A stretch of 64,000 nucleotides of DNA from Phaseolus vulgaris (lineage: Eukaryota > Streptophyta > Magnoliopsida > Fabales > Fabaceae): positions 37,510,105 through 37,574,104 of the forward strand of contig NC_023749.2 of the NCBI RefSeq assembly GCF_000499845.2, written 5' to 3'. Positions within the stretch are counted from its first letter, which is position 1, and each line of letters opens with the position of its first letter. This document shows positions 1-62,708 of the stretch, in pieces. Below the pieces are notes generated by a model. It was given only the letters and a program-made list of their open reading frames with translations, was not told the origin of the DNA and did not search any database. The translations under genes were made by a program, and so were the position numbers.

Positions 1-520
1 CAACCTCAAGACCAAGAGGGGGTGTTCATGGTTACCGAGCGCCCACCTAGTGGAGACAAGGGTGCCCGCGCAGGGGTCTCCCGCACAGAAAGCGCTCGGG
101 AGAGGCGACCCGAGCCAGTAGGGGATATCGTGGAGAGGCAGATTGGGGGCAAAATGTTCAAGCTTGGTAAGTTGTTGAACCAAGCGGAGCAAGATCAAGT
201 TGCCGGGGTGATAGCACGACACCTGGACGCTTTTGCATGGTCTGCCTCGGACATGCCAGGCATAGACCCAGATTTCCTGTGTCACCACCTCACCATGGAT
301 CCCAAGGTCAGGCCCGCCCGCTAGAGAAGAAGGAAGTTCAATGAAGAAAGGCGGCGGGTCGTCCAGGAAAAAACAAAGAAGTTGTTGAGTGCCGACCACA
401 TAAGGGAGATTCAATACCTTGAGTGGTTGGCAAATGTGGTCTTGGTGAAGAAGGCCAACGGGAAGTGGAGAATGTGTGTGGACTTCACCGACATCAACAT
501 GGCATGCCCGAAGGACTCGT
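1..520 (+). pseudogene. Gypsy pol fragment, protease-RT linker and N-terminal RT
   Basis: Translation gives the linker and start of a Tat-type reverse transcriptase: a 'FAWSASDMPGI' block, then 'LANVVLVKKANGKWRMCVDF' and 'ACPKDS', the standard N-terminal RT motifs of this lineage. A stop (TAG at 322-324) interrupts the frame soon after 'KVRPAR', and homology continues in the same frame beyond it. Homology ends abruptly near 520, where the sequence changes to a Copia LTR. The YVDD catalytic block is absent, so this piece cannot be functional. It matches the minus-strand Gm element almost motif for motif. Confidence 0.85.
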
Positions 521-522
521 AA

Positions 523-38800: not shown

Positions 38801-38900
38801 TTAAAATATTTTAAATTGTATAATTTATAAATTTATTTTGATTTTATAATTTAAAATTAAAAATATATATTATAGATTTTACAGTATAAAAATAATTGGA
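32836..38900. repeat. AT-rich degenerate repeat cluster
   Basis: A unit beginning AATTAATTTGATAATTGG and continuing through 'GTAAAACTGTATATTATTGA', 'AAGTGTACAACTATTTGTA' and 'TAAGAGTTAACAAACTAACT' recurs. Starts are near 33605, 33963, 34931, 35175, 36504, 37104, 37342 and 37676, spaced 238 to 1329 bp. A separate block at 32870-33090 is duplicated at 36096-36250. Copies are diverged and interrupted, so this is a decayed, partly tandem family rather than a regular satellite. Confidence 0.75.
35470..36100 (-). pseudogene. DUF247 protein fragment
   Basis: The minus strand encodes 'TPQIVSIGPYHHKVDNIFET' with 'MEENKPKYLKGI' and, further on, 'DLILLENQLPFFVLE', the two hallmark blocks of plant DUF247 proteins, which are usually 400-550 residues long. 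Only the N-terminal third is present, with a frame break near 35836 and a stop after 'VLE'. It sits inside the AT-rich repeat cluster, so it was probably carried or left there by repeat expansion. Most DUF247 proteins have no known biochemical function. Confidence 0.8.
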
Positions 38901-40556: not shown

Positions 40557-40561
40557 GGTTG

Positions 40562-41292
40562 TGTACCGGTACGGAGGAGAGATCGGGACCCACCCGGCTG
40601 CCCGATGCCGTGTCAGCCTGACCGAGACCATGAGAACCTGGCCGAAACCTTTTAAGACTTGGCCGAACGGCCGGAGCAGAAACCTTTGAAGACTTGGCCG
40701 AACGGCCGAAGCAGAAACCTTTGAAGACTTGTGCCGAGAGGCCGAAGCCTTTGAAGACTTGTGCCGAGAGGCCGAAGCCTTTGAAGACTTATGCTGAGAG
40801 GCCGAGGCCTTAGAAGGCTTGGCCGAAACCGCCAAAGACCACAGGGATTTGGCCGATGGCTGACCCGCACCGTGGGAATTTGGCCGATGGCCGAACCCCA
40901 TTACAACTAACGCTCAGACCGAGATCAGTGAAGCTAATCCATCATCAAGAATTAGGTAATGCAACCCTAAGCGGTATCCACCTCGATAAACGGTCCCAAC
41001 AAGGTAGGCCCACTAGAATAATATAAATAGCATGCATTTCAAGGAGTAAGGTATGTCATTATTACTGTTCACCTACCTGAGAGCTAACCACCCGCTTTAC
41101 TGACTTGAGCGTCGGAGTGCCTTCGCAGGTACCCCCACCATCCGGTGTTCACCCGACGACCGAGTCCCGAGTGCCGAAAGATAAGCAGAAGGAAGAGAAG
41201 GATCCCAGTTCATCACTCAACCACCTGCCCGACCGAAGGAAGGAGAAGAAGACTTCAACAGTTCTCTAGGTCCCATCTCCCTAGCAGGAACA
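40562..41292 (+). repeat. G1 5' LTR
   Basis: TGTACCGGTACGG at the start, AGCAGGAACA at the end, 731 bp. It contains ~30-bp internal repeats ('GACTTGTGCCGAGAGGCCGA', then AGCCTTTGAA), TATAAATA at 41022-41029 and the shared motif TGACTTGAGCGTCGGAGTGC at 41101-41120. Confidence 0.97.
41022..41029 (+). promoter_or_regulatory. TATA box of the G1 5' LTR
   Basis: TATAAATA, repeated at 51489-51496 in the 3' LTR. It lies ~80 bp upstream of the shared 20-nt R/U5 motif. Confidence 0.75.
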
Positions 41293-44300: not shown

Positions 44301-46691
44301 GGCTTCATGCTCACCCACCGAGGGATAGAGGCCAACCCCGACAAATGTCAGGCCATACTCAGCATGAGAAGCCCGAACACCGTGAAGGAGGTACAACAAC
44401 TCCTTGGGCGGCTGACCACCCTCTCTCGATTTGTCCCCCGCCTGGCCGAGAGGACGAGGCCGATCGTTCAGTTGCTCCGTAAAGGCAAAAAATTCGTCTG
44501 GGACGACCAATGCGAGGAAATCTTCAAAAAATTCAAAGAGTTCCTCACATCTCCGGCCGTCATCCAGAAGCCGAGACCCGACGTCCCAATCCTCGTATAT
44601 CCAGCAGTCTCGGAAGAAGCAGTCAGCGCTGCCCTAGTGTAGGAGGCCGAGGGCGAGGAGCGACCCATATACTTTGTCAGCCGAACCCTCCATTCGGCCG
44701 AGACCCGATATCAGATGATTGAGAAGGTGGCTCTCGCACTCGTCCTCACGGCAAGACGGATGCGCCCCTACTTCCAAAATCACTCCATAACGGTAAGAAC
44801 CGACTACCCTATTTTCAAAATTTTATCTAAACAGGACCTTGCAGGGAGGATGATAGGATGGTCGGTCGAACTCTCCGAGTTCGACATACGTTATGAGCCG
44901 AGGGGCGCCATCAAGTCTCAATGCTTGGCCGACTTCTCGGCCGAGCTGACACCACTGCCCACCCTCTCGGACGGTTGGACTCTCTACGTGGACGGCTCAT
45001 CAAATAAAACAGCCTGTGGAGCGGGAGTCGTCCTGGAAGGGCCGGGCGACCTCCTCCTGGAACAAGCCCTCCAGTTCGGATTTCGGGCGACCAACAATCA
45101 GGTCGAGTACGAGGCCTTGCTGGCCGGGCTGAACCTAGCTTACGACATGGGAGCGCGCGAGGTTACATGCAAAAGCGACTCCCAGGTGATGGTCGGCCAA
45201 GTCAACGGAGATTTCGAGGTTAAAGAGCCTTTGCTGCAGCGGTACTACCACGCGGCCAAAAACAGTATCGCCCGCTTCAACAAAGCGCCCTTGCAACACA
45301 TACCGAGGGAGGACAACAAAAGGGCCGACATCCTGTCCAAGCTCTCGATCACCAAAAAGAAGAGCCACCAGAGGTCAGTCATACAAATATGGCTGAGACA
45401 CCCTAGTGTGACGGAGGCCGAGGCCGAGTGTCTGGCTATCGAAGAAGAAGAGGCCGACGCCGAAAACTGGATGACACCCGTCATCCAATATCTAACGGTC
45501 GGCACATGCAAGGCCGGCCAAGAGAAGGCGATGAAGCAGCAATGCGCCCGGTACATCATGATTAACGAAGATTTGTATCGGAGAGGCTACTCGACCCCCC
45601 TGCTAAAATGCATCACCAACAAAAGGGCCGAGTACATCCTGGCCGAGATCCATGAAGGAATCTGCGGAAATCACGCCGGGACGAGGACGATGGCCGCCAA
45701 AGTTTTGAGGGCCGGCTACTACTGGCCGACCATGCAAGGCGACTGTGCCGAATATGTGAAGAAATGCGCCAAGTGCCAAGAGTTCGGCCCCCTCCACCAC
45801 ACCAGGCCGGAAGAACTGCATAGCATCATCTCCCCATGGCCGTTCGCCATGTGGGGGATGGACATTATCGGGCCATTCTCCCTAGGGAAGGGGCAGACCA
45901 AATTCCTCCTGGTGGGAGTCGACTACTTCACCAAATGGATCGAGGCCGAGCCCCTCGCCTCCATCTCGGCGAAGAATGTACAAAACTTCGTATGGAGGAG
46001 CATAGTTTGCCGATTCGGCGTCCCACACACAATAGTAACTGACAATGGCCGACAGTTCATCGACCGAGGCCTACAATCCTTCTATGACGACCTGGGCATC
46101 AAGTCCGTCACAGCCTCGGTGGAACACCCACAAACCAATGGGCAGGCCGAGGCCGCCAACAAGGTCATACTCAACGAGCTGAAGAAGCGTCTGGGCAAAG
46201 CAAAGGGCCGATGGACCGAGGAGTTGATCGAGGTACTTTGGGCGTACAGGTGCACTCCCCAAACTACCACACAAGAAACGCCCTACAACCTGACATACGG
46301 AACCGAGGCCATGATCCCGGTAGAGGTGGCCGAGCCCACCATACGACGGCAGATGTTCGATCTCACCCTAAACGAGGAAAGCCTAGCGGTCAACCTTGAC
46401 TTGGTAAGTGAGCTTCGTGACAAAAGCAAGATTCGGGAGGCTGCCTGCAAAGCCCGGGCGACCAGACGGTACAACACCAAAGTCCGGCCGAGAGGTTTCC
46501 AGAAGGGCGATCTTGTCTGGAGAATGCGCAGCGACGCAAGAAAAAATGAAGGGAAGTTCTCATCCAACTGGGAGGGACCCTTCCGAGTTCGAGAAGTTGC
46601 GCAGGGAGGGGCTTATCATTTAGAATGGCTGTCAGGAAAAATTGTACCGAGGACGTGGAATGCCACGCACCTCAAGTTCTATTACAGCTAA
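41343..46691 (+). pseudogene. G1 gag-pol polyprotein (one frame, two nonsense codons)
   Basis: The ATG lies 30 nt after the primer binding site. In one continuous frame: an N-terminal coiled coil (residues ~15-60), the gag core (~125-235, with 'LKGAALSWFTKL'), a C-x2-H-x4-H-x4-C knuckle (C378, H381, H386, C391), aspartic protease (D544 of DQGSS), RT with YVDD (44157-44168), RNase H, then a second RNase H-like domain beginning 'LYVDGSS' (~44985), and integrase with the HHCC finger and DDE motifs ('GMDIIGPF', 'VTDNGRQF', 'GQAEAANK'). Two RNase H domains are typical of the Tat clade. TGA at 43737-43739 and TAG at 44640-44642 interrupt it; homology continues in the same frame after both. Confidence 0.93.
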
Positions 46692-46796
46692 AATCAATAA
46701 AATCACGCACTCTTTCCTCACCCAACCAGGGAGGTTTTAACGAGGCGTTTTCATCAAAAGTGTTGCAAATATCCTACCGAAAGTATTGGCCGAACG

Positions 46797-47390
46797 CCCA
46801 CTTGCTCGATTAACATCGCAAGTGCCGGCCCGCCGACCGCCCGCTCGCTCGATTAACATCGCGAGTGCCGGTCCACCGACTGCCCACTTGCTCGATTAAC
46901 ATCGCAAGTGCCGGCCTACCGAACGCCCTCTTGCTCGATTAACATCGCAAGTGCCGGCCTTCCGAACGCCCTCTCGCTCGATTAACATCGCGAGTGCCGG
47001 CCCACCGGCTGCCCACTTGCTCGATTAAAATCGCGAGTGCCGGCCCGCCGACCGCCCGCTCGCTCGATTAACATCGCGAGTGCCGGCCCACCGACTGCCC
47101 TCTTGCTCGATTAACATCGCAAGTGCCGGCCTTCCGAACGCCCTCTCGCTCGATTAACATCGCGAGTGCCGGCCCACCGGCTGCCCACTTGCTCGATTAA
47201 CATCGCGAGTGCCGGCCCGCCGACCACCCGCTCGCTCGATTAACATCGCGAGTGCCGGCCCACCGACTGCCCTCTTGCTCGATTAACATCGCAAGTGCCG
47301 GCCTACCGAACGCCCTCTTGCTCGATTAACATCGCAAGTGCCGGCCTACCGAACGCCCTCTTGCTCGATTAACATCGCAAGTGCCGGCAC
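46797..47390. repeat. G1 tandem array 1: 43-bp units with a hairpin core
   Basis: About 14 units of 43 bp, each with CTTGC or CTCGC, then TCGATTAACATC, then GCAAG or GCGAG. In 12 of 14 units the right arm matches the left arm of the same unit. Units 5-8 and 9-12 repeat as a higher-order block of four (172 bp). Confidence 0.92.
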
Positions 47391-48222
47391 GCCCACATTT
47401 TCAGTTGCTCGAATTTTACATTCGCAATTAAATGGCCGGCCGCCCATATTTTTACTTGCTCGAATTTTACACTCGCAATTAAATGGCCGGCCGCCCATAT
47501 TTTTACTTGCTCGAATTTTACACTCGCAATTAAATGGCCGGCCGCCCATATTTTTACTTGCTCGAATTTTACATTCGCAATTAAATGGCCGGCCGCCAAC
47601 ATTTTCAGTTGCTCGAATTTTACATTCGCAATTAAATGGCCGGCCGCCAACATTTTCAGTTGCTCGAATTTTACATTCGCAATTAAATGGCCGATCGCCC
47701 ACATTTTCAGTTGCTCGAATTTTACATTCGCAATTAAATGGCCGGCCGCCCATATTTTTACTTGCTCGAATTTTACACTCGCAATTAAATGGCCGGCCGC
47801 CCATATTTTTACTTGCTCGAATTTTACATTCGCAATTAAATGGCCGGCCGCCCACATTTCCAGTTGCTCGAATTTTACATTCGCAATTAAATGGTCGGCC
47901 GCCCTTATTTTTACTTGCTCGAATTTTACATTCGCAATTAAATGGCCGGCCGCCAACATTTTCAGTTGCTCGAATTTTACGTTCACAATTAAATGGCCGA
48001 TCGGCGGTAATTTTATTTGCTCAAGTTATACGTTCACACTTAAATGGCCGGTCGCCCACATTTTCAGTTGCTCGAATTTTACATTCGCAATTAAATGACC
48101 GATCGGCGGTAATTTTATTTGCTCAAGTTATACGTTCGCACTTAAATGGCCGGCCGCCCACATTTTTACTTGCTCGAGTTACACGTTCGCAATTAAATGG
48201 CCAGTCGCCCATATTTTTAGAA
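47391..48222. repeat. G1 tandem array 2: 51-bp units
   Basis: Sixteen units of 51 bp containing TTGCTCGAATTTTACATTCG plus CAATTAAATGGCCGGCCGCC. The inner 'TTGCTCGAW...WTCGCAA' inverted repeat is shared with array 1, so the two arrays likely descend from one unit. Because 51 is a multiple of three, several frames are open by default. Confidence 0.92.
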
Positions 48223-48400
48223 GACCGATTGAGTAACTTGTCAATTCTCACACCAAAATGATGAAAGGAAAACGGGACGACACATTAATAAACAAACATA
48301 TTAGGCGATACATCAAAAAACCAAAGCAAAAGAGGCCACACCCCGGCCTCGGAGGAAATCAAAAGAGCAAGAAAAGGCCACACCCCGGCTAAGGGAAAAC

Positions 48401-50611
48401 CTACTCCTGAACCTCTGTGCACTCCCCCTCCTCGGCCTCAACCCCCTCGACCCGAGCCACGGCCTCCCCTTCATTGGTCCCGGCCGCCGAAGCCTCCTGC
48501 GCCGACAAAGCCCCCACCTCAGCACTCGGAACCAGCCGGCCCTGGTAAACCTCATAGTCCATGTTAAATGAACCAGTGGCCGGCGGCCCTCCATAAAGCA
48601 CATGAGCCTGGCGCACCGCCCGGTCGAAGCATTGCTGGAGCAACTCCTCCGACTCCTCATAATTTTGGTCGAGCTCAGCCTCGACCTGCTCCTTTGCGGT
48701 TTGGAGGGCGGCCAACTTAGAGGCCGAAGATGAGAGCTTCTCCTCGGCCATCTTCTTCACCTCGACGACTTCGGCCGCCGCCCTTCGGGCCTCCTCCTTG
48801 GCCGAAGCCAAAAGCTGCCTCGCCTGAGCGGCATCCTTCGCGGCAAGCTCTCTCTCAGCAGCCTCCCGGGCAGCATTGGCCGAAAGTTCAGCATTAGCAG
48901 CCAAGGACCGCTGCAAATCCTCACGAGCCTCGGCCAGCTCCTGCTCCAACCGAGTCACCTCCTCGGCATGCCGGTCGTGGCCTTCAACCCCGTGCTCAAC
49001 GAGGACGATTGACCGGCACATAAGTTCTAGGCCGCTCCTCACCAAGTCAATGGGGGGGACCGACCGGAGCGACTCCCGAGTCCCCTCGGGGAGAGCCACG
49101 CGAACTCTTCGCATGAACCTGTGATTCCCCCCAAGCAGATCCAGGGCCGAGGACGAAGACCGGTGGCCTCCAGCTTGATGCCCAGATGCCTGCTCCACGC
49201 GCCGAGGGGACAAAGGGATCGCCTCGACAACCTCACGGGGAGGAGGCGGTGTCGGCAGAGAGCCGGGGGAACGATGGGTGGTAGCAATGTTACCTCCATC
49301 CCTCGGTCTCTTCTTGGACTTATGGGAGGGACCGGCCTCGCCCCTTCCAGCACCATGGGCGGTCGAGGGAATAACATCAATACTCTGACGTCCCTTTCGG
49401 GCAGCCGCCCTCTCCCGATACTTGTCGAGGACGCTGACGCCGGCCGGTTTCTCCTGAGCCATCGTAGCTGCAAACCAAAACAGTTAGAACAACATAAATA
49501 AAAAACACTGACCGACACAACAAAGGACGAGCCTCATACCCCTAATGGCTGCCCAACGCGCTGTCTCGGTATATGCACCGATCAGCGATCGGCAAGGAAG
49601 CTTCCTTGGGAGCGCATCGAAGAAGGAGAGAATCTCCACCTCCTCGCCCTCCGTCGGCCTCGGCCAAGACTTAAACTCCGTCGGCTTGGAAGTCCAATAC
49701 AGGGGAAACCGAGACCGACCTGCCTGGTCAAAGAAAAAGGCCGTCGCCTCGGGCCGAATGACAACCTTGACGAACCTCTCTTTAAACCTCTTGTACGAGA
49801 CCGCGAAAGGGTCGAACAAAACACTCCCTGGCCGACCGGCCAAAGATAGCCAAGAAGCAAGGCGACCGGGATGAGAGCCATATTAGCAAAGAAAAGAAGA
49901 AGGGGTTGGGCGAAGCCGCATAACGTCACACAACAAGCGAAATGCCTGAAGGGACGCCCATGTATTTGGGTGTACTTGGGTAGGGGCCACGTTGAGCGCC
50001 CGAAGGACGCCCATTGTAAACTTATCAAAGGGGAGAGACACGCGAAGGTCGGAGAAGAAGCAAGCATACATATAGAAAAAAGGAGGACCGTTACCAGCCC
50101 GATCCAGACACACCCGCTCGGTCGGCCCACACGGCAAGATCCTGAAGTAGTCTGGATCCCTGGAATCGTCAGAACCCTCGCCCGCTTTCAACACCGGGTA
50201 CCTGGCCAAAAACTTGGCCACAGACTTCTCGGTGCCATAAGTGGACGAGAACTCAACAACCCTAGGATCCACCCAACTAAAATCCGCGAGTGGGACAGCT
50301 GTCGGGGGTGAGCCCGACCGGTCACCAGCGCTAGCAGGGGGAGAGCCCGGCCGGGCAACTACGATAGTAAGAGGGGAATCCGATCGGTCAACGGCGTTAA
50401 CCGGGTCGTCCCCCCTAACCACCTCTACCATGGGTGACCCCTCGGCCATCCCAACCGATAAAGAATCGGTGGCAGATGAAGAGGTTGACGAAGAAGAGGT
50501 TGACTTAGGAGTTGACAAAGAGGAAGAAAGCCCAAGGACACGAGAGGGGCAACCGGAAGAGGGGGAAGAATGGCCGGACGTCCCTGACGTTGGCCGAGAC
50601 ACGGTTGACAT
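48401..50611 (-). pseudogene. G1 antisense accessory gene, two exons, one nonsense codon
   Basis: Minus strand: exon 1 is 50611-49540 and exon 2 is 49467-48401 (712 codons plus stop after splicing). The ATG at 50611 is the first in this frame after a TATA box at 50762-50755. Exon 1 is serine-rich, then has a domain with 'FSDLRVSLPFDKFTMGVLRA', 'VAPTQVHPNTW', 'AFRLLCDVMR' and 'FPLYWTSKP', similar to the Pfam 'putative gypsy type transposon' family. Exon 2 begins 'MAQEKPAGVSVLDKYRERAA', has a basic 'KSKKRPRD' possible nuclear signal, a ~130-residue alanine-rich coiled coil and an acidic tail. TAA at 49885-49883 is the only break. The function is unknown; coiled coil and basic stretch suggest a nuclear oligomer, which is inference. 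Confidence 0.82.
49468..49539 (-). other. Intron of the G1 antisense gene (72 nt)
   Basis: GTATGAGG donor, a TTCTAAC branch-point match about 20 nt before the acceptor, a U-rich 3' half and TTTGCAG acceptor. Splicing joins exon 1 to exon 2 in frame at phase 1, three codons before the residue numbering of exon 2's own ATG would start. Confidence 0.82.
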
Positions 50612-50754
50612 CACTACTAACCTTGGAAAAACGAGGTGAAGCTTTGCCAAAAGACCGAACGGTCACTCGGTTCTCAGAGAGTGGGCGAGGGAAGGCTCCA
50701 CTATCAGACAAACTCACTCAGAAAATGCAAGGTCTCGACACTGTTGGAGACCCC

Positions 50755-50762
50755 TATTTATA
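50755..50762 (-). promoter_or_regulatory. TATA box of the G1 antisense gene
   Basis: GGGCCCTATAAATAGGGG on the minus strand, ~145 bp before the start codon. G2 has GGGC-TATAAATAGG at the equivalent place. Confidence 0.7.
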
Positions 50763-51010
50763 GGGCCCATGGGCCTCGGAATTCGAAGCGTCGAATCAAT
50801 CTCAACCGTTAGATCTCTTAGATCCAACGGTTCACAATACTTCCCGCCCAGAAAACCCCTCATTAATGCCAATCACATCACGTCACCAAAGGTCATGTCA
50901 CGCCGCCCAGATCACGTCACACCTCGAGAAACGAAACAACCGCACGCCCTAGGAAGACCGGCCGAGTCCCATTATTGAAGACTCATCGGACATAACTCAC
51001 GCGTCTGCCC

Positions 51011-51028
51011 TTGAGCCTGGGGGGCAAG
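51011..51028 (+). other. G1 polypurine tract
   Basis: TTGAGCCTGGGGGGCAAG immediately before the 3' LTR. G0 and G2 have comparable G-runs at the same place. Confidence 0.7.
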
Positions 51029-51759
51029 TGTACCGGTACGGGGGAGAGATCGGGACCCACCCGGCTGCCCGATGCCGTGTCAGCCCGACCGAGACCATGA
51101 GAACCTGGCCGAAACCTTTTAAGACTTGGCCGAACGGCCGGAGCAGAAACCTTTGAAGACTTGGCCGAACGGCCGGAGCAGAAACCTTTGAAGACTTGTG
51201 CCGAGAGGCCGAAGCCTTTGAAGACTTGTGCCGAGAGGCCGAAGCCTTTGAAGACTTATGCTGAGAGGCCGAGGCCTTAGAAGGCTTGGCCGAAACCGCC
51301 AAAGACCACAGGGATTTGGCCGATGGCTGACCCGCACCGTGGGAATTTGGCCGATGGCCGAACCCCATTACAACTAACGCTCAGACCGAGATCAGTGAAG
51401 CTAATCCATCATCAAGAATTAGGTAATGCAACCCTAAGCGGTATCCACCTCGATAAACGGGCCCAACAAGGTAGGCCCACTAGAATAATATAAATAGCAC
51501 GCATTTCAAGGAGTAAGGTATGTCATTATTACTGTTCACCTACCTGAGAGCTAACCACCCGCTTTACTGACTTGAGCGTCGGAGTGCCTTCGCAGGTACC
51601 CCCACCATCCGGTGTTCACCCGACGACCGAGTCCCGAGTGCCGAAAGATAAGCAGAAGGAAGAGAAGGATCCCAGTTCATCACTCAACCACCTGCCCGAC
51701 CGAAGGAAGGAGAAGAAGACTTCAACAGTTCTCTAGGTCCCATCTCCCTAGCAGGAACA
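51029..51759 (+). repeat. G1 3' LTR
   Basis: 731 bp, the same length as the 5' LTR with about five substitutions. It ends AGCAGGAACA and is followed by the GGTTG target duplication. Confidence 0.97.
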
Positions 51760-51764
51760 GGTTG

Positions 51765-52555
51765 TGTTCCATGGTATTTTGTGTCTCATAATTTTAAATA
51801 GAGTTTGATAGAAGTATGACTTTATGATGTAGGCTTCCTGATTAGCGATATTTGTAGGTGATTATTTCGGATGATTATTTCGGTTTATATATACTTATAA
51901 TTAGAATTAATACTTTTATGTTGGAATCTTAATATGAAATTTTAAATTTAAAAGGAATTGAAGTAATTTGGATTTAATTGATAGGAGATTTTGTAGAAAT
52001 TGAAATTATATATGGACAAAATATTGAATTTTATTTGGATATGAGATTTAACAAAAATGTTTCAAAATGGTTTTGATTTTGAATTGAAAATGATAGAGTG
52101 GTATGTGGGAGTGAAAAATGAAAAGTTTTGTAATTCAAATTTTTAAATAATCTTTTCTAATATAAATTGTCTAGTGAATTAGAGACAATAAAAAGAGGAA
52201 ATTTTGGAGAATTTTATTGAAAAAATTTCCTCCAATAAAAAAAGTGCTAAAAATTACTTATAGATAAAAAAAAAATCTCTGACAGATTTAAACAAATAAC
52301 TTTGTTATATATAATTCCAATTTATTACAAAAATATCAGAATACTTCTTATATATTGTGTTGATGTTTATTATATGATTAGACATGTAGTATTTTAAGGA
52401 TTAGAGTAAAATATTCTATGAATTTTATGATTTGGTAATTTCTAGTAATAGTTAGGTTGTAAAATTTTGTATTAATTGGATTTAGTTGAAATGGATGGAT
52501 GTGAGTAATGGACTATCAAGTATTAGAGTCCTTAATTAAATGAGACATCCAAAAT
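51765..52555. other. AT-rich host spacer between G1 and G2
   Basis: No gene or RNA recognised. The sequence continues from the G1 insertion site (flank before 40557) and leads into the TTAGT duplicated target of G2. Confidence 0.6.
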
Positions 52556-52560
52556 TTAGT

Positions 52561-53117
52561 TGTACTTGTAGGCTAAAATCGAGAGGTTTAGGCCGAGAAC
52601 AACATTAAGTAAACAAGGGGGGATAAGGTTAAAACCGAGAGTGAAAAAGATATACATTAAAGAATAAAATAAAATATAAGTACTACTATAAAAATAAAAC
52701 CCAATTAAGTTTAAAACCTACAGGAGGGGTGTGTAAATAATAAAAAGGTGTAAAGAGAAAGTCCAACAGAAAAGGGGAAAAGCCCATTAAGGAAACCCTA
52801 TAAATAGAAGTCCAGAGTAAGAAAAAGGTAAGAGTGATTTTATCTGATGAATATTAAACCTTTTCTGACTTTGGCATCGGAGCAACTTGCAGGTACCCCC
52901 CACCTGTCGTGAGGAGAAGCCGAGAGCACCAGCCGATAGGAGAAGCCGAGAGCACCAGCCGAGAGGAGAAGCCGAGAGCACCAGCCGAGAGGAGAAGCCA
53001 AGAGTTCCTGTCGAGGAGAGAAATCAAGTATCCAGCCCAAGATAGTATCCAGCCCAAGATTGAAGGATTAGTCTTGTTAACCTATTTCGAGTGTTCTTGG
53101 TCCCTGCTGTAAGAACA
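52561..53117 (+). repeat. G2 5' LTR
   Basis: TGTACTTGTAGG to GTAAGAACA. TATAAATA at 52799-52806, the R/U5 motif variant TGACTTTGGCATCGGAGCAA at 52866-52885, and direct repeats of 'GCCGAGAGCACCA' near its end. Confidence 0.95.
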
Positions 53118-53120
53118 TTT

Positions 53121-53138
53121 TGGCGCCCACCGTGGGGC
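53121..53138 (+). other. G2 primer binding site, tRNA-Lys(CUU) type
   Basis: TGGCGCCCACCGTGGGGC three bases after the LTR, identical to G1. Confidence 0.85.
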
Positions 53139-53169
53139 CGAGGGTCAATTGAGAAGGGTTAAAGACAAG

Positions 53170-56100
53170 ATGAGTCAAGGAGGAGAACAAGGTGGAGATC
53201 GGGAAGACAATGTTAACATGCCAATGGCAATGTTGGTCCAATTACAAAAAGAATTCGAGATGTTAAAAAAGAATAATGAAGAAGAATTGTGTATGTTGAG
53301 AGCCGAAAATGCACACATGAGGAGAAAGTTACAAGAGGAATCGGTGTTGAATTCATCTTTCGAAACTGTTCAACCTGGGATACAAGTGAATGAAAGGCTA
53401 TATCACAACGAAAGTTCCCAAACCAAAAGAAGATGGCTTGAAAACTCTGGGGTTTGTGCAGGGACATCTTCTAGAAAACATCTGTTTTATGATGTTATAA
53501 ATGATACTCCGTTGCCTGACAATTGGAAGAACTTGACCATTGACAAATATGATGGGAGTATGGACCCTGATGAGCATATTGCAATATATACTACTCAAAT
53601 CAGCTTGTATACATGGAATGATGCTGTTATGTGCAGAGTATTTCCTACAACTCTGAAAGGGGCAGCATTGAGCTGGTTTACACGCCTCCCACCTTTGAGT
53701 ATAGATTGTTTTGATACATTGATAGAAAAGTTCGGCGCTCAATTTGCAACTAGTCGTCCTCATCATTTAACGTCAATCGCCTTAGTGAACATAAGACAAG
53801 AGAAAGGAGAGTCTTTAAGAATGTTCATGGAACGTTTTGGAAAGGTTGCTTTGGGAATCCGAAATCTTAGCCCAGAGGTTACCATGCATCATATGATAAC
53901 GACATTAAAACCGGGACCATTTGCCGATAGTCTTTGTAAGAAACCTGCGATCAATTTGGATGAACTAAGGCAACGAGCATCAAAATTTATGCAAATGGAA
54001 GAATTAAGGGAGTTTCGAAACCAAGTAAGGGTTGATGGAGGTGAGAAGAGGGTGATAGAAAGAGAACACCCACCTGTTGCAAGAAGAGCCCGAGAAGAGT
54101 TCAGAAGTCGAAAGTTCCAACAATACACACCTCTAAATACAAACAGAGCAAGAATTTTACAGGAAGCCATGGCAGCCGAAATAATACCATCACCAAGAAA
54201 AGCAAGAACACCAGAAAGGGCAGACCGCACCAAACATTGTGAATATCATAAAAATCATGGTCATCATACAGAAGAATGTATTGGGTTGAAAGACAGAATA
54301 TAAGAGTTGATTCATGCCGGGCAGTTAAAACGTTTTGTTCAAAGGGGAAACGCAAGAGCATGGTTGAGCCCTGAGAGAGATGTGAGAGGGCGAGAGCTGG
54401 GTGAAAGAAGGGTTGAAAGGTTTGAAAGGAGAGAAAATAAACGAGTGGAAAAAAGAGATGATAGAAGGATTGGAAGGCCAGATGAAAGAGGAGATAGAAT
54501 CTATCAAAGCACCCAGTCAGTAAGACGAAGCAGAGAGCGAAGTTTGGGAAGGCCGGTTAGGGGGTTTATAAATACGATCTCAAGGGGTTTTTCTGGGAAG
54601 GAATCCTCATCTGCACGAAAGCAACATTGAAGAAATATCAGGGCTGTTAATCATGTTTTTAAAAGAAGAACTTTACCACCAATGCTTTTCACAGACGAAG
54701 ACTTTCAAGAAATTGATCCAGATCATGATGATCCTATGGTGATCACGGTTGAAATAGCCGAATATGTTGTCATGAAGACCCTGGTTGATCAAGGGAGTTC
54801 GGTTGATATCTTGTTCTGGGATACGTTTAAAAGGTTGCATTTGAGAGAAGAAGACATAGTGCCTTTCCAAGAGCAAATCATTGGCTTTTCGGGTGAAAGA
54901 GTTAACACAAAAGGATATGTTGATTTGGTAACAACATTTGGAAGAGGTAGCAAAATTAGAAAAATTAAAATCCGATATCTGGTGGTGGATGCATCCACTT
55001 CATACAATGTGTTGCTAGGACGATCTTCCTTAAATAAGTTAGGAGCAATTGTGTCAACACCGCACTTGGCCATGAAATTCCCAACAGAAAAAGGAGAGAT
55101 AGCGACAGTTTATGTCAATCAAAGAGATGCTCGGGAGTGTTATGCGGCAGGTCTAAAAATGAATTTGAAGATGGATAGAGATGCTGAAAAAATAGTAGCC
55201 ATGGTGGACTTGGATCCCAGATTGAATGAGGAAAGGCTGGAGCCGAAAGAAGAAACAACAGCAGTAGTGTTAGGCCAAGACGACAGACAGTGCACTTATA
55301 TAAGTGGAAGAATGCCTGATGAATTGCTTAGCAAACTCATCACACTGTTGCGTAGCAATAAGGATTTATTTGCCTGGCAGCCGTTTGATATTCCTGGAAT
55401 TGATCCAGAGGTAATGTGTCACAAATTATCTGTTTGCCGGGAAGCAAAGCCGGTATCTCAAAAACGAAGAAAGTTAGGAGAAGAACGACGAAAGGCAGCA
55501 ATTGAAGAAACTCAAAAATTAATACAAGCTGGTTTTATCCGAGAAGCTAAGTATACTACGTGGTTGTCTAATGTGGTACTCGTCAAAAAACCAAATGGAC
55601 AATGGAGAATGTGTACAGATTACACCGATTTGAACAAAGCCTGCCCAAAAGACACATATCCATTGCCTAACATGGACCGACTAGTTGATGGGGCATCTGG
55701 CCAAGAGATGATGAGTTTTCTTTATGCTTATTCGGGGTATAATCAAATACAGATGTATGCACCTGATATCCTGAAAACAGCTTTCACCACTGATGTTGCA
55801 AATTATTGTTATAAAGTCATGCCTTTCGGCTTGAAGAATGCTGGAGCAACATACCAAAGATTGATGGACAAAGTGTTTAAAGAACAGATTGGAAAAAACC
55901 TAGAAGTGTACGTTGATGACATGGTCGTTAAATCAAGTGATACAGAAACACCTGGAAGATCTTGAAGAAGTGTTTGCTCAAATAAGAAAGTACAATATTC
56001 GTCTTAATCCAGAAAAATGCGTTTTCGGCGTCAGAGGAGGAAAAATTTTGGGATTCATGTTGACAAACAGAGGAATCGAAGCCAATCCTGATAAATGTGA

Positions 56101-58426
56101 GGCAATCATGCAGATGGGAAGACCGAAAAACCTAAAAGAAGTACAAAGGCTAGTAGGAAAGCTGAATTCATTATCAAGATTTCTGCCAATATTGGCTGAG
56201 AAAACCAAACCGATTATAAACTTGTTGAAAAAATCTGAAAACTTTGTGTGGAGTGAACAATGTGAGCAAGCTTTATCTCAAATAAAAAGCATGGTGGTTG
56301 AACCTCCAAACTTAGTAAAACCTGTACCCAATCAACCCATCATAGTCTACTTAGCCACTTCAAATGAAGCAATAGGAGCTGCTTTAATCCAAGAAAACCC
56401 AGAGCAGAAACCGATATATTTTGTGAGTAGAACCCTACAAAATGCCGAAACCAGATATCCCAAAGTTGAGAGAATTGCCTTAACATTAGTGTATGCTGCA
56501 AGACGCCTTCAACCATACTTTCAGAATCATCAGATAATTGTGAGGACAGATTTTCCAATATCTAAAATTTTAAAAAAACCAGAGCTTGCAGGTCGAATGG
56601 TGACATGGTCAATGGAGCTTTCGGAGTATGGAATCAAATACGAACCAAGAGGACCAATTAAAGCCCAATCTCTTGCAGATTTTATCATTCAGATGCCAAC
56701 ATCAGCACAACAGGACCAGTGGACTTTGTATGTAGATGGCGCGTCAAGCAAAAGAGGAAGCGGAGCAGGAATAGTACTTGAAGGACCAGATAATTTCCAA
56801 GTAGAGATGGCGCTAAGATTCGAGTTCAAAACATCCAACAACCAGGCCGAATATGAAGCTCTTGTTGCAGGATTGTTATTAGCCAGAGACATAGGAGTGG
56901 AAAATGTCATTTGCAAAACTGATTCACAGCTATCGGTGGGACAAGTGCACGGGGAGTATCAGGTAAAAGACCCTTTGTTAATGAAATATTATCATAAAGT
57001 CTTAAATATTATGCAATGTTTTAACAAAGCCGAGATGAAATATATTCCAAGAGAATTAAATATGAAAGCAGATTCATTGTCTAAGTTAGCAAGCCAACAA
57101 AGGCAAGTGCAACACAATTCAGTCATACAACAAACCCTCAGTCATCCGACAGTTAGTCTGGACGAATGCTTCAATATTATAACATCCAAAGATGACTGGA
57201 TAAAAACATACATCGAAATCATAAAGACCCAGGAGCAAGGTGTTGAGCCGGATGCCAAAACAGCAAAGAAAGTCGCTAGTTTCATTCTAATCGGTGATGA
57301 GCTATATAAAAGGGGATATTCCATGCCCCTGTTAAAATGTTTGACCAAAGAACAAGCAGAATATGTGGTCAAAGAACTTCATGAAGGAATTTGTGGACTG
57401 CATTGCGGAGCTAGAACAATGGCAACAAAGGTTTGCAGAGCTGGTTATTATTGGCCAACAATCCGAGAGGATTGTGAAGTTTATGTCAAAACATGTAGAA
57501 AATGCCAAGAGTTTGGGAGCTTAAATCATATCCCAGCGCAGGAGTTGCAAGAAATTATATCTCCATGGCCATTTACAAAATGGGGAATTGATATACTTGG
57601 CCCATTCCCACTTGGACGAGGCCAAACAAAATTCAAGATAGTAGTTGTAGACTACTTTACAAAATGGATAGAAGCAGAGGCATTGACAAAGATAACGGCA
57701 CAACAAGTCCAAACGTTTGTATGGAAAAATATAATATGTCGATTCGGAATCCCACATACTATTGTAAGTGACAATGGCCGACAGTTCATTGAAAAAAAAC
57801 TTATGGAATTTTATGCAGATTTGGGAATCAAGCCCACAACCACTTCAGTTGAACATCCGCAAATGAATGGACAGGCCGAAGCCGCAAACAAGGTTATTCT
57901 TGGACAATTAAAAAAGAGGTTGGGGACTGCTAAAGGATTATGGCCAGAGAAATTACCGGAGATCTTATGGGCATATCGTTGCACACCGCAAACATCAACT
58001 GGAGAAACACCGTTCAATCTCACTTACGGAACAGATGCAATGTTACCAGTAGAAGTTAATGAACCCACATTAAGAAGACAAATGGAAGACTGGAATATCA
58101 ACAATGAGTGTTTGAGAACCGATCTTGATCTTATTGAAGAACTTAGAGAAAAAGCAAAAATAAAGGAGACTGCAGTAAAACGAAGAGCAATGAAGAGATT
58201 TAATGCAAAAGTAAAATTTAGGGCTTTTAAAGAAGGTGATCTGGTATGGAGAATGCGAACTGATGCTCGAAAGGATCCACGACATGGAAAGTTGGCATCC
58301 AATTGGGAAGGTCCTTTTAGGGTGCTAGAAAACTTACAAAATGGAGCTTATAGATCAGAAACTTTGGAAGAGAAAGTGATACCGAGAACCTGGAATGCAA
58401 GTCATCTAAAATTTTATTTTAGTTAA
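53170..58426 (+). pseudogene. G2 gag-pol polyprotein (two stops, one frameshift)
   Basis: The first ATG after the primer binding site is at 53170 ('MSQGGEQGGDREDNV'). Domain order equals G1: coiled coil, gag core ('LKGAALSWFTRL'), knuckle C-x2-H-x4-H-x4-C near 54240, protease DQGSS near 54788, RT with YVDD near 55908, RNase H, a second RNase H ('LYVDGAS', ~56730), and integrase with 'GIDILGPF', 'VSDNGRQF' and 'GQAEAANK'. TAA at 54301-54303 and TGA at 54628-54630 are in frame, and a one-base shift falls near 55935, just after the RT catalytic site. The C-terminal half is then open for 837 codons. Confidence 0.92.
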
Positions 58427-58539
58427 AATAGATGTAAAAAGAAGACTATGTAATTATTTATCATATAATGAAGAAGAATTCTCAAGAAACAATCCATCTT
58501 GTTATCTTCCATTATGTACATATTCATTCTTCGTTTCTC

Positions 58540-58830
58540 GGCCTTGGATGCTTTCACTTCAGGTGAAATCCCACCCGAGAATAGATTTACACAATTTCTT
58601 TGGGCTTGGATGCTTTCAGGTGAAATCCCACCCGAGAATAGATTTACACAATTTCTTTGGGCTTGGATGCTTTCATTTCAGGTGAAATCCCACCCGAGAA
58701 TAGATTTACACAATTTCTTTGGGTTTGGATGCTTTCATTTCAGGTGAAATCCCACCCGAGAGTTGATTTACATAACTTTTTTGGGCTTGGATGCTTTCAC
58801 TTCAGGTGAAATCCCTCCTGAACAAACATA
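58540..58830. repeat. G2 tandem repeats after pol (~62 bp units)
   Basis: About five units of 'GGGCTTGGATGCTTTC' plus 'ATTTCAGGTGAAATCCCACC' and 'AGATTTACACAATTTCTTT'. The second unit is shorter. Each unit carries the palindrome TTTCAGGTGAAA. Confidence 0.88.
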
Positions 58831-58879
58831 AATATACTTCTCATTTTTGAAAGCCTTCAAATCAGATGAAATCCCTGCC

Positions 58880-59780
58880 GTCAGAATCTTCCTTTAAAAC
58901 TGTCAATCTTAAACGTTTTATTTCACACGGAAACTGAAAGATCAGAATTAAAAGATACATGATCTTTACACCTTCACAAAACGCCAGGTCTAAAGCAGTA
59001 ACTTTACAATTCGAAAAACCGAAAGCTACTCATCCAAAATACATTGCTAAACCGACAATTGCATATTACAATCAATCATGTATCAATTATGAATCAACCT
59101 TAATAAATTAAAGGTTTCTGATTAATAACTTTATACTTCACAATTTAAAAGATAAAAAATGCTTGTTCGATAAAACCGAAAGCAAATAATCCAATACGAT
59201 AAAACCGAAAGCAAATAATCCAATGCGATAATCACGGGGTAATATACTTTTTTAAATCCCAACCGAAAGAACCCGGTAACAATCTTATTAACAAATGAAT
59301 GTTTTAAATTTAAAATAAATAACCCAAAGGGTCAATATTGGGTTAAACACCGAAAGGCCTTTAATGTTAAATGATTATAATCCGAAATATCACGCTTAAA
59401 AAACCGAAAGGTCCAGGTTACAACATAGTCAATATCTTCATGCTCTAACTGAATGTCATGTTTAAACTAATATTTATGATCATTAAAACCGAGAGGTGAG
59501 CTCAAACAATTCAGACATTTTTAACGCTTTCAACATAAAGAAAACCGAAAACTAACAAGTCTCACAACGATTATAACCGAAAGAAAATTTTAACCAGACA
59601 ACATAATATAAAGGATAAAATTATGATGATAACCACAAAAGCTTAAACATTTATATTAACAAAGTTCCCAAAAAGGAATTACATCACGAATGCAAATATC
59701 CAACAAACCCAGCATTCCAAAACAATTGTACTTCTCAGCAAGTAACCGAGAGGTAACTGACAAACTATAAAACTTAAAAC
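58880..59780. repeat. Dispersed ACCGARAG motifs in the G2 spacer
   Basis: The 8-mer ACCGAAAG or ACCGAGAG recurs a dozen or so times, once in a clear 34-bp tandem pair at 59175-59225. The G2 LTR begins with the same 'AAACCGAGAGG' word. No coding content. Confidence 0.5.
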
Positions 59781-59787
59781 CCTATAC

Positions 59788-61753
59788 CTAATTTTCGATA
59801 TTAATATCTTCAGCATCATTATCCGAAATTTCATTAGCAGGAACTAGCTCACCATTAAAAAAGTCCTTCTTAACATCAAAATTACCTTCATCAATAGGAA
59901 TCTTATAAAAGTATTTTGCTTGTTGAAGAGCCTTCTCAAAGCCAAGTTTGTGTTGTTCAAATATAAAACTTTCGGCTTCAAAAACATTAGTCCTTAGCTG
60001 ATTAATCTCCTCATCCATGAGTTTGATGGTGTTCTTGTCGGATTCATTCGTAGAAGATAGCGCTGATACCTTCTCGGTCAAAAGTTGATTCTCTTTGAAC
60101 AATTGAACATTCTCTGCGCTAGATTTCAGATTTTCATTCTTCAAATCAGAAATTTCTTTTCCAAGACCTTCATTCTCGACTTCTTGTTCCTTTTTCTGTT
60201 TTTTCATCTTTTCTAACTCTAAAGATAAAGAGTTCATCCTTTCCTTATACTCAGCAAGATCATTCTTCAATTTTTCAAATTCAGATAACGACACGTAGTT
60301 CCCATTCTTCTCTTTCATCATTTTTCCAATCAAAAGATTTCTACTTGACAATTCAATAACAGAATCCGCTAATGAAGCAGCATCCATATTTTTCAGCATA
60401 TTGTAAGATGATTCACTAAAAGATGTTTGAACAAACTTTGCATACTTAGTCATAGCACTAAAAATCGTCTCAGGAAGAGGTTCAGATGAAACATTTTCAC
60501 TATGGCGATGGCGCCGAGAAGACGAATGTGACCTCTTGCTACTCCTATCTCGTTTCTTCGATTTCTTCGAAGGACCAGCAACATCGACATTACTTGTCGG
60601 TTCCACCACGTCAACATTAGCAACAAGTTCCACAGTTTCTACTTCCACAACAGGATTTACCACATTCTCACGTCGGGGAGTTACATCTTTGTTCAGCAAT
60701 TTCGAAAAGTAAGATCGAGCTTTCGGATTAGTGCTTGCCATCAGAGCTGAAAATCAATAAAAAATTTAGCAAAGTTAAAAAACTCATCCTAAAAAGCAAG
60801 AAAATGCGGAACAACCACGTACCAGTAAGATCTTCTCGAGGATGTGATGAAGTATACAACTGTAGCAAGGCACGAGTGGGAACTTGGTACGAGAAACGAC
60901 TAAAAACTTCAATAACATGACGATCGGCCACACCCATCGAATGGAAAGATATTGAGTTAAACTTCACAGGATCTTTCGTCCAATACAGAGGAAATTTTGG
61001 AGAATTTCCATTAAAGAAGTATTCTCTTCCTATTGGCTCTATTAGAATTTTGAAAAAACTTCCCTTAAAATCCTTATACGACAACGTAAAAGGCTTAAGA
61101 AAACACACGTTGGATTTGCTAATAAGGGATAGCCACCCCGGCCGTTTACCAGGCCGAGAACTATAATAGTATAGAAACGCAGAGGGACTAGGAGAAAGTG
61201 ACAATAATTTACACAAAATATTGAATGCTTGCATCGCAGCCCAACCATTAGGATGAAGCTGAGTAGGAGCAACATTAAGAAAATTAAGAACGCCCATTTG
61301 AAAATTGTTCAAAGGCAATCGAATATGCAGATCTCTGAAAAAGCAAGCATAAAAATAAAAAAATTCATAGCTATCACCTTCTCGGCCATGACACACATTA
61401 TCAACATCTCCAACACGCCGAAATGAAATGATATCATTTTCAATATCAGAATAGTAAATTTGATAACGGGAAAGAAAACTCCGAAGTTCGTTAGCAGAAC
61501 GATACTTCGAGAAATACTCTCGGACTTTAGGATTAACCCATTAATAATTGGGACAAAGGTTTTTCTGAGGCACGATAAATTCAAATTCTTGAGGAATATC
61601 AATAGCAGGAGCTCCACTTGAATCATTCATACAAGATGGAGTAGCAAATGAAGATTTCGACTCAGGAGGAACTTCTTCTCGAACCACTCGGCCAGTTGAT
61701 TCACCACCCGCGCTTGAAAATTCATCAGTAGCAGAAGAACTTGAAAGAGACAT
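59788..61753 (-). pseudogene. G2 antisense accessory gene, two exons, one nonsense codon
   Basis: Minus strand: exon 1 is 61753-60823 and exon 2 is 60746-59788 (629 codons plus stop after splicing). Exon 1 starts 'MSLSSSSATDEF' and carries 'YACFFRDLHIRLPLNNFQMG', 'VAPTQLHPNGW', 'AFNILCKLLSL' and 'FPLYWTKDP', aligning with G1 and G0. Exon 2 starts 'MASTNPKARSYFSKLLNKDV', then has an SR/basic stretch ('KKSKKRDRSSKR'), a ~150-residue coiled coil and a C-terminal 'GFEKALQQAKYF' block. The only break is TAA at 61543-61541. It may be a nuclear factor acting on the element; this is inference. Confidence 0.82.
60747..60822 (-). other. Intron of the G2 antisense gene (76 nt)
   Basis: GTACGTGG donor and a U-rich body ending ATTTTCAG. 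Joining 60823 to 60746 keeps the frame at phase 1 and gives 'A-L-M-A' at the junction, against 'A-T-M-A' in G1. Confidence 0.82.
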
Positions 61754-61845
61754 TACCTTCGCAAGAATTGAACGAAGATTGACAATACGCTTCCTTCTCA
61801 ACAGCAGCAAAGCTCAAACAATCATAAAAAACCCAATGGCAAACC

Positions 61846-61853
61846 TATTTATA
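61846..61853 (-). promoter_or_regulatory. TATA box of the G2 antisense gene
   Basis: GGGCTATAAATAGG on the minus strand, ~95 bp before the start codon at 61753. It matches the element in G1. Confidence 0.68.
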
Positions 61854-62089: not shown

Positions 62090-62703
62090 TGTACTGGTAG
62101 GCTAAAACCGAGAGGTTTAGGCCGAGAACAACATTAAGTAAACAAGGGGGGATAAGGTTAAAACAGAGAGGTTTAAACCAAGAGTGAAAAAGATATACAT
62201 TAAAGAATAAAATAAAATATAAGTACTACTATAAAAATAAAACCCAATTAAGTTTAAAACCTACAGGAGGGGTGTGTAAATAATAAAAAGGTGTAAAGAG
62301 AAAGTCCAACAGAAAAGGGGAAAAACCCATTAAGGAAACCCTATAAATAGAAGTCCAGAGTAAGAAAAAGGTAAGAGTGATTTTATCTGATGAATATTAA
62401 ACATTTTCTGACTTTGGCATCCGAGCGACTTGCAGGTACCCCCCACCTGTCGTGAGGAGAAGCCGAGAGCACCAGCCGAGAGCACCAGCCGAGAGCACCA
62501 GCCGATAGGAGAAGCCGAGAGCACCAGCCGAGAGGAGAAGCCGAGAGCACCAGCCGAGAGGAGAAGCCAAGAGTTCCTGTCGAGGAGAGAAATCAAGTAT
62601 CCAACCTAAGATAGTATCTAGCCCAAGATAGTATCCAGCCCAAGATTGAAGGATTAGTCTTGTTAACCTATTTCGAGTGTTCTTGGTCCCTGCTGTAAGA
62701 ACA
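62090..62703 (+). repeat. G2 3' LTR
   Basis: TGTACTGGTAGG to GTAAGAACA, preceded by the purine-rich TCTCGGGGGCTAG. It is 57 bp longer than the 5' LTR because of an extra 'AGAGGTTTAAACC' segment and extra copies of 'AGAGCACCAGCCG' and 'GATAGTATC'. TATAAATA at 62342-62349. Confidence 0.95.
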
Positions 62704-62708
62704 TTAGT

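What the first reader, a model, noticed from the sequence alone, without database searches (positions are those of the whole stretch)
48401..61753. A spliced antisense gene with the same intron in three different Tat retrotransposons
G0 (3336-1353), G1 (50611-48401) and G2 (61753-59788) each carry a minus-strand gene between pol and the 3' LTR. In all three a short intron (115, 72 and 76 nt) lies at the same place, phase 1, just before a conserved Met codon. Joining the exons keeps the frame in each. G1 and G2 have GT-AG ends; G0 has a mutated donor. Extra antisense ORFs are known in Tat elements (for example maize Grande), so the ORF itself is not new. The conserved intron and the fixed two-domain architecture (gypsy-type transposon domain plus nuclear coiled coil) across an AT-rich and a GC-rich family indicate a selected gene rather than a chance ORF.
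Basis: partly seen in the sequence, partly recalled or inferred. Interest (0 to 1): 0.88.

Follow-up and report, generated by a model that had tools for sequence, protein, structure and literature searches.

The report
Spliced antisense gene in bean retrotransposons
Two young bean-family jumping elements carry a backwards-facing gene that appears to be cut in two by a small intron at the same spot as in several relatives, so what has been catalogued as separate backwards reading frames looks like one spliced gene for a two-part protein.

Summary
The splice anatomy is confirmed for G1 and G2, not for G0. G1 (LTRs 40561-41292/51028-51759) and G2 (52561-53119/62090-62705) each carry, antisense between pol and the 3' LTR, an exon coding a Transposase_28 (TRP28) domain, a phase-1 GT-AG intron (72 and 76 nt, half T), and an exon coding a basic linker, a coiled coil and a conserved C-terminal motif. 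The antisense TRP28 ORF is published for Retand/Tat elements; I found no held paper that describes the intron. Relatives support it: of 29 unannotated ORFs that reach the junction, 28 carry a codon there that fits reading into a GT donor, and one, from a family otherwise unspliced, runs across as if spliced; 41 of 55 annotated proteins that reach it join there. Two Vigna families dominate. Exon 1 is predicted as one confident domain ending at the intron, without structural match. Corrections: every window copy has an in-frame stop in exon 1; G0 has no GT donor, a weak acceptor and a broken exon 2. No RNA was seen; splicing and function (nuclear accessory regulator) are inferred. The intron argues against origin from a mature sense mRNA.

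The parts
40561..41292 (+). G1 5' LTR (aligned extent), followed by a stretch in PBS position, ATTGGCGCCCACCGTGGGGCC (not matched to a tRNA)
   Evidence: 99.3% identical to the 3' copy over 732 nt
51028..51759 (+). G1 3' LTR (aligned extent)
50754..50762 (-). G1 antisense TATAAATAG, 151 nt upstream of the exon 1 ATG, outside the LTRs
49540..50611 (-). G1 exon 1 (TRP28 match about 50041-49904); in-frame TAA at 49885-49883
49468..49539 (-). G1 intron, 72 nt, phase 1, GTATGA...TTTGCAG, 50% T
48401..49467 (-). G1 exon 2: basic segment 49360-49301, coil-like region (Mis12 match under cut-off), C-terminal motif CFDRAVRQ at 48631, stop 48403-48401
46661..48341 (.). G1 tandem arrays (43-nt and 51-nt units; approximate extent) between pol and the end of the antisense gene
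52561..53119 (+). G2 5' LTR (aligned extent), followed by TTGGCGCCCACCGTGGGGCC in PBS position
62090..62705 (+). G2 3' LTR (aligned extent); 7 mismatches and 57 gap positions against the 5' LTR
61845..61853 (-). G2 antisense TATAAATAG, 100 nt upstream of the exon 1 ATG, outside the LTRs
60823..61753 (-). G2 exon 1 (TRP28 match about 61324-61154; predicted folded domain 61540-60824); in-frame TAA at 61543-61541
60747..60822 (-). G2 intron, 76 nt, phase 1, GTACGT...TTTTCAG, 53% T
59788..60746 (-). G2 exon 2: basic linker 60570-60511, predicted long helix 60288-59905, C-terminal motif GFEKALQQ at 59943
1353..3336 (-). G0 decayed copy of the same antisense gene: TRP28 about 3036-2881, C-terminal motif GFEDALAQ at 1439; stops and frame changes; intron not supported

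Best explanation
The antisense region between pol and the 3' LTR of these Tat-type elements (Retand by their TRP28 gene; no RT tree was built) is one gene of two coding exons, not two ORFs. Proposed working: RNA polymerase II transcribes it antisense from its own TATA promoter lying between the gene and the 3' LTR; the host spliceosome removes one short T-rich phase-1 intron; the mRNA gives a protein of about 630-710 aa made of a folded TRP28 domain (exon 1) joined to a flexible basic linker, a long coiled coil and a short conserved C-terminal motif (exon 2). The protein most likely enters the nucleus, dimerises or oligomerises through the coil, and uses the TRP28 domain to bind element nucleic acid or a chromatin/integration partner, as an accessory regulator of the element. 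The sense genomic RNA carries only the intron's complement, so the intron survives every retrotransposition cycle. Shown here: exon-intron anatomy in G1 and G2, its recurrence in relatives at protein level, domain fold and coil by prediction, protein-level constraint across families. Inferred: actual splicing, promoter use, nuclear entry and function. My split: one spliced gene 0.92; nuclear accessory regulator 0.4.
For: G1-G2 introns at one column and phase; top-ranked splice pairs under a recalled matrix. Of 46 unannotated ORFs (source labels jgi, ena, lgn), 29 reach the junction: 27 have Gly and 1 Ser at the junction codon, as reading into a GT donor after a phase-1 exon end requires, and then diverge; most end 1 to 46 residues later. 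One (P0004, lgn contig of 1745 bp) has Asp and runs straight into exon 2 with no intron, though its group mates P0055 and P0087 have the Gly form. Four ORFs with an open 3n intron (P0005, P0030, P0031, P0032) all show Ala followed by Ala, Asp or Glu at the acceptor, as GCAG|G-type joins require. Of 84 annotated proteins 55 reach the junction and 41 of these join to the start of exon 2 at the same codon (my reading of the list). Constraint: difference by codon position 0.45/0.34/0.69 for the G1-G2 exon 1 domain and 0.60/0.47/0.77 for exon 2. Exon 1 model pLDDT 93.3, pTM 0.92, its last helix ending at the intron; exon 2 with a helix of 128 residues. C-terminal motif in G0, G1 and G2. Antisense TATA in both young elements.
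Against: No RNA read was seen; P0004 may be an assembly artefact or intron-loss copy and its library type is unknown. The relatives were seen as proteins only, so Gly is compatible with, not proof of, GGT. The 29 and 41 are not independent: 18 of 29 are one group, and 35 of 41 are two groups, mainly Vigna. All three window copies are broken. G0 has no GT donor. P0003 cannot encode an AG just before the exon 2 Met (my reading). Fourteen of 55 annotated proteins do not join cleanly. Recalled splice matrix; perturbed matrices give G1 a median rank of 3, 95th percentile 58. A conserved Met 2-5 codons after the junction is also what a separate second ORF would show. dS is saturated, so no dN/dS. 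The promoter and function steps are untested.
Confidence: 0.75

Rival explanations
1. Two separate antisense ORFs: a TRP28 protein ending in the spacer and a coiled-coil protein starting at the conserved Met; the spacer is not an intron.
For: Conserved Met just after the junction; Vicient 2025 counts 104 antisense ORFs over 63 clusters, of which 57 carry TRP28 (PMC11963269); the 2014 common-bean survey used FGENESH and GENSCAN and speaks of one ORF2 without intron or exon in its text.
Against: In the 29 raw ORFs similarity ends at the same codon, which fits a GT donor in 28, while the ORFs end 1 to 46 residues further or run on through an open intron (some ends may be contig ends); acceptor AG with T-rich tract in G1 and G2; P0004 reads across; no TATAAATAG upstream of exon 2 in G1 or G2.
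Confidence: 0.07
2. The antisense transcript acts as RNA (dsRNA, siRNA source or interference with sense RNA) and the protein is dispensable.
For: Vicient and Casacuberta 2020 raise this possibility (PMC7264820); window copies are broken.
Against: Protein-level constraint by codon position, near-invariant residues in the 48-row alignment, confident fold and shared C-terminal motif.
Confidence: 0.1
3. The intron is regulated: retention gives a TRP28-only protein (or an inserted isoform where the intron is open and 3n) and splicing gives the coiled-coil fusion. (A refinement of the best explanation, not exclusive of it.)
For: Open 3n introns in P0005, P0030, P0031, P0032; early ends inside the intron in others; [quoted passage not shown]
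Against: ORFs crossing the intron in frame are found only if the intron is open, so the 3n cases are a biased sample; no RNA data.
Confidence: 0.2

Closest known systems
Antisense TRP28 (PF04195) ORFs of Retand elements (Vicient 2025, PMC11963269)
   Same: Antisense, between pol and 3' LTR, TRP28 domain, coil-like secondary domains (Mis12, SMC; G1 exon 2 matches Mis12 under the cut-off), tandem arrays in the same region
   Different: That main text has no occurrence of 'intron' and treats open reading frames one by one; here they are exons of one gene
ORF2 of 15 common-bean Ty3-gypsy families (Gao 2014, PMC4093653), e.g. pvRetro13
   Same: Legume, opposite orientation, SMC-like similarity, sizes 211-939 aa (pvRetro13: 631 aa, LTR 579; G2 spliced product 629 aa)
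   Different: No occurrence of 'intron', 'splic' or 'exon' in the text; whether G2 is pvRetro13 was not tested
Grande gene23 of maize (Gomez-Orte 2013; not held, known through PMC7264820)
   Same: Antisense gene with its own promoter and a nuclear product
   Different: Exon structure unknown to me; no sequence comparison was possible
HBZ of HTLV-1 (PMC3185765, passages)
   Same: Proposed to work alike: antisense, spliced, nuclear, zipper-type coil, regulator of sense transcription
   Different: Not a relative; transcript starts in the 3' LTR, ZIP domain, no TRP28
Ogre pol intron (PMC6317226, passage)
   Same: Spliceosomal intron in a Tat-clade element

Membership tests
Retand-type Tat elements with antisense TRP28 gene | TRP28 domain antisense between pol and 3' LTR | tested here: met
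   for G1 and G2; the G1 score is under Pfam's cut-off (24.4 against 26.2), G2 above. G0's element ends were not found
Retand-type Tat elements with antisense TRP28 gene | Ty3-gypsy pol with an extra RNase H between RNase H and integrase | tested here: met
   Retrotrans_gag, RVT_1, RT_RNaseH, RVT_3 (taken as the extra RNase H by its position), integrase in G1 and G2, in pieces separated by stops or a frame change
Retand-type Tat elements with antisense TRP28 gene | RT phylogeny within Retand | not tested
   no tree was built
Spliceosomal (U2-type) intron | GT-AG ends, T-rich, short plant-like length, same phase and position in relatives | tested here: met
   for G1 and G2 (relatives at protein level only); G0 not met
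Spliceosomal (U2-type) intron | Removal seen in RNA | tested here: inconclusive
   one intron-free contig ORF, P0004; library type unknown
HBZ-like antisense retroviral regulators | bZIP domain | tested here: not met
   no bZIP in the Pfam scan of the pieces (E up to 0.1)

The most novel reading that the evidence does not exclude
The intron is ancestral to the Retand antisense gene: the gene entered the element as intron-bearing DNA (a nested gene or transposon in reverse) rather than as a processed mRNA, and has since been kept as a strand-locked, spliced nuclear regulator in which exon 1 is an undescribed protein fold and splicing decides between a TRP28-only and a TRP28-coiled-coil protein.
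Probability: 0.25. Interest if true: 0.75.

Novelty: new variant of a known kind. Interest (0 to 1): 0.55.

Why it matters
Antisense ORFs of such elements have been reported since the 1990s (Grande 1997 and RIRE2 1999, as cited in PMC7264820) without agreed origin or function, and Vicient and Casacuberta (2020) asked for a search for antisense and spliced transcripts. A fixed intron unites what has been counted as separate ORFs, gives the right full-length protein to express and localise, gives exact junctions to look for in RNA data, and bears on origin: capture of a mature sense mRNA would have left no intron. Annotators should model this gene with two exons.
Full report
What is in the window. 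G1 spans two LTR copies 99.3% identical over 732 nt and G2 two copies with 7 mismatches and 57 gap positions, so both look like young insertions. They share a stretch in primer-binding-site position (TTGGCGCCCACCGTGGGGCC) although one is GC-rich and one AT-rich. Pfam finds gag, RT, RNase H, an RVT_3 domain and integrase on the plus strand in both, in pieces separated by in-frame stops or a frame change. The minus-strand ORFs in question lie between pol and the 3' LTR.

The proposed gene. Both introns are phase 1, G|CT, with GT-AG ends, 50% and 53% T against 19-37% T in the exons. Using a splice-site matrix that I wrote from recall, the proposed pair is the best of 2002 GT-AG pairs of 65-300 nt in G1 and of 1377 in G2. 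With 300 randomly perturbed matrices the median rank is 3 for G1 (95th percentile 58) and 1 for G2 (95th percentile 11), rank one in 71 and 230 of 300. The two introns fall in the same alignment column, although the exon 1 proteins are only 41% identical over 239 residues.

Exon 1 of G1 has an in-frame TAA at 49885-49883 and exon 1 of G2 one at 61543-61541; relatives are open at both places. G0 has a TGA at codon 3, a TAA at 2880-2878 and frame changes in exon 2. So no window copy is intact. G0 also has no GT at the proposed donor and its acceptor ranks 14 of 142. G0 belongs to the gene family by its TRP28 domain (E 3.1e-10) and by the C-terminal motif at 1439, but it does not support the intron.

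Relatives. Three protein searches (each scored only the roughly 8,000 candidates sharing most words) gave 130 proteins; the named ones in the listings are all from legumes (Vigna, Phaseolus, Mucuna, Lotus, Sesbania, Cajanus). 46 are unannotated ORFs with source labels jgi, ena or lgn, which I take as metagenome and Logan assemblies, and 84 are annotated ncbi/uniref proteins, which I take as gene models. A profile of exon 1 was used to find the junction. Of the 46, 29 reach it and 17 do not. A phase-1 intron after a G predicts that unspliced DNA reads Gly (GGT) at the junction codon. It is Gly in 27, Ser in 1 (P0003, fitting an A|GT donor) and Asp in 1 (P0004). Only proteins were seen, so Gly fits GGT but does not prove it. 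After the junction codon the ORFs diverge between families and end 1 to 46 residues later (some may end at a contig end), or, in four cases, pass through an open intron. P0004, from a 1745-base lgn contig, goes straight on into exon 2 (NDIILKMDPS), while its group mates P0055 and P0087 read NGEYLF and NGEHLF, which fits a GTGA donor. That is what a spliced cDNA would look like; I could not see the library type, and an intron-loss copy is possible, though precise loss would itself point to a spliced RNA. By a greedy 60% grouping (25 groups) the 29 fall into six groups: 18 in that of P0070 (Vigna unguiculata-like), 3 each in those of P0076 (with G2), P0055 and G1, and one each for P0005 and P0006. 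The donor form is present in all six. P0098 (...LGM) fits too but lies outside the count.

Acceptors. Four ORFs read the whole intron in frame (P0005, P0030, P0031, P0032); all four have Ala then Ala, Asp or Glu at the acceptor, as needed for GCAG|G-type joins. P0002 passes the intron out of frame and is compatible with CAG. P0003 cannot encode AG in the last codons before the exon 2 Met, a counter-example. ORFs that cross the intron in frame are seen only if it is open, so their 3n lengths are a biased sample.

Annotated proteins. Of 84, 55 reach the junction and 29 do not; by my reading of the list 41 of 55 join exon 1 to the start of exon 2 at the same codon (for example NVFD|YLSKMD in V. 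angularis, IIDIEG|HMAQ in V. unguiculata, REDLTA|LMAS in P. vulgaris P0001; two of the 41, P0080 and P0110, have Ile for the Met) and 14 do not. Of the 41, 20 are in the P0040 group and 15 in the P0070 group; five other groups have one each and one is ungrouped. The V. angularis genome paper predicted genes after repeat masking with MAKER, AUGUSTUS and RNA-seq assemblies (PMC5389050, passages); whether reads back these particular models is unknown.

Constraint. Differences by codon position are 0.45, 0.34, 0.69 for the G1-G2 exon 1 domain (0.75, 0.75, 0.73 expected if unrelated) and 0.60, 0.47, 0.77 for exon 2 (0.74, 0.73, 0.76 expected); dN is 0.58 and 0.98 with dS saturated. In a 48-row alignment (P0087 entered twice, so 47 distinct) three columns are invariant and 17 nearly so, and 47 of the 48 rows match TRP28. 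This is past selection on the protein across families; it is not a within-family dN/dS.

Protein. The exon 1 piece of G2 folds with mean pLDDT 93.3 and pTM 0.92 as one mixed domain whose last helix ends at the exon end. There is no match in PDB, by VIA-align or in BFVD; no match does not prove a new fold. Exon 2 is predicted as a short helix, a low-confidence stretch that holds the basic segment (SKKSKKRDRSSKRSHSSSRR in G2), a helix of 128 residues and a short C-terminal strand pair (mean pLDDT 70.1, pTM 0.33, 22 sequences). The motif GF/CFxxAxxQ near the C-terminus is in all three window copies; 30 of 130 proteins match the pattern, 28 of them towards the C-terminus and two (P0098, P0129) elsewhere; many of the 130 are too short to hold it. 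So the intron sits at the border of two protein modules.

Promoter. TATAAATAG occurs 10 times in the window against 0.79 expected from shuffles. Four lie in the four LTRs in sense; two lie antisense, 151 and 100 nt upstream of the exon 1 ATG of G1 and G2, outside the LTRs; the other four are elsewhere in the window. This fits the published own promoter of Grande gene23 (second-hand, PMC7264820).

How it most likely works. See best explanation. The antisense orientation has a simple consequence, inferred: the sense genomic RNA has no splice sites at this place, so the intron is copied faithfully, and its persistence needs no selection. It also means that the gene was probably not taken up as a mature mRNA in sense. 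An intron could further help the antisense mRNA to escape RNA silencing, which is known for plant transgenes (recalled; one search was only a search listing).

Literature. The antisense TRP28 ORF is established: 97% of Retand clusters (PMC11963269, abstract, passages and section 11 part 1), Transposase_28 in 23% of Retand elements (PMC6317226, passage), ORF2 in 15 common-bean families (PMC4093653, passages). PMC7264820 was read in parts 1 and 2 of 3. What I saw of these mentions no intron in the antisense gene, and searches listed no paper whose title or shown abstract does (several listings were cut to the best 12-20 of many). Grande 2013 and Steinbauerova 2011 are not held, so the intron may be described there.

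Verdict. A real and recurrent intron, to judge from sequence, that unites known antisense ORFs into one gene; ordinary in being part of a known accessory gene, new as far as I could search in its gene structure, with splicing in RNA and function still to be shown.

Noticed in passing
window 3570-3348, minus strand: Strong candidate leader intron (AAG|GTATGA ... TTTTTTAG, 223 nt, score 12.5 under the recalled matrix, about that of the G2 intron) ending 11 nt before the G0 ATG.
   Followed up: partly
window 61540-60824: The TRP28 region folds as a confident domain of about 239 residues, far larger than the 69-position Pfam model, with no match in PDB or BFVD.
   Followed up: yes
window 41343-46691 and 53113-58426: gag-pol of G1 is one frame with two in-frame stops; gag-pol of G2 has two in-frame stops and a frame change within RT.
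   Followed up: partly
window 52875-53086 and 62418-62655: 26-nt repeats inside the G2 LTRs seem to differ in number between the two LTRs, which would explain 57 gap positions against 7 mismatches.
   Followed up: no
window 29489-30490: Array of about 26-nt GC-rich units (GTCGTACGGGCCCGG...), 36 overlapping copies of a 68-nt reference listed.
   Followed up: no
window 72-521 and 23020-23469: Inverted, 74% complementary 450-nt arms; the first looks like RT sequence by eye, so a second Tat-like pol fragment in reverse is likely.
   Followed up: no
window 33400-38900: AT-rich region of interspersed diverged repeats in many families.
   Followed up: no
proteins P0112, P0113, P0118, P0119: A divergent TRP28 group whose ORFs lose similarity to the profile before the usual junction; a shifted donor in another phase is possible.
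   Followed up: no
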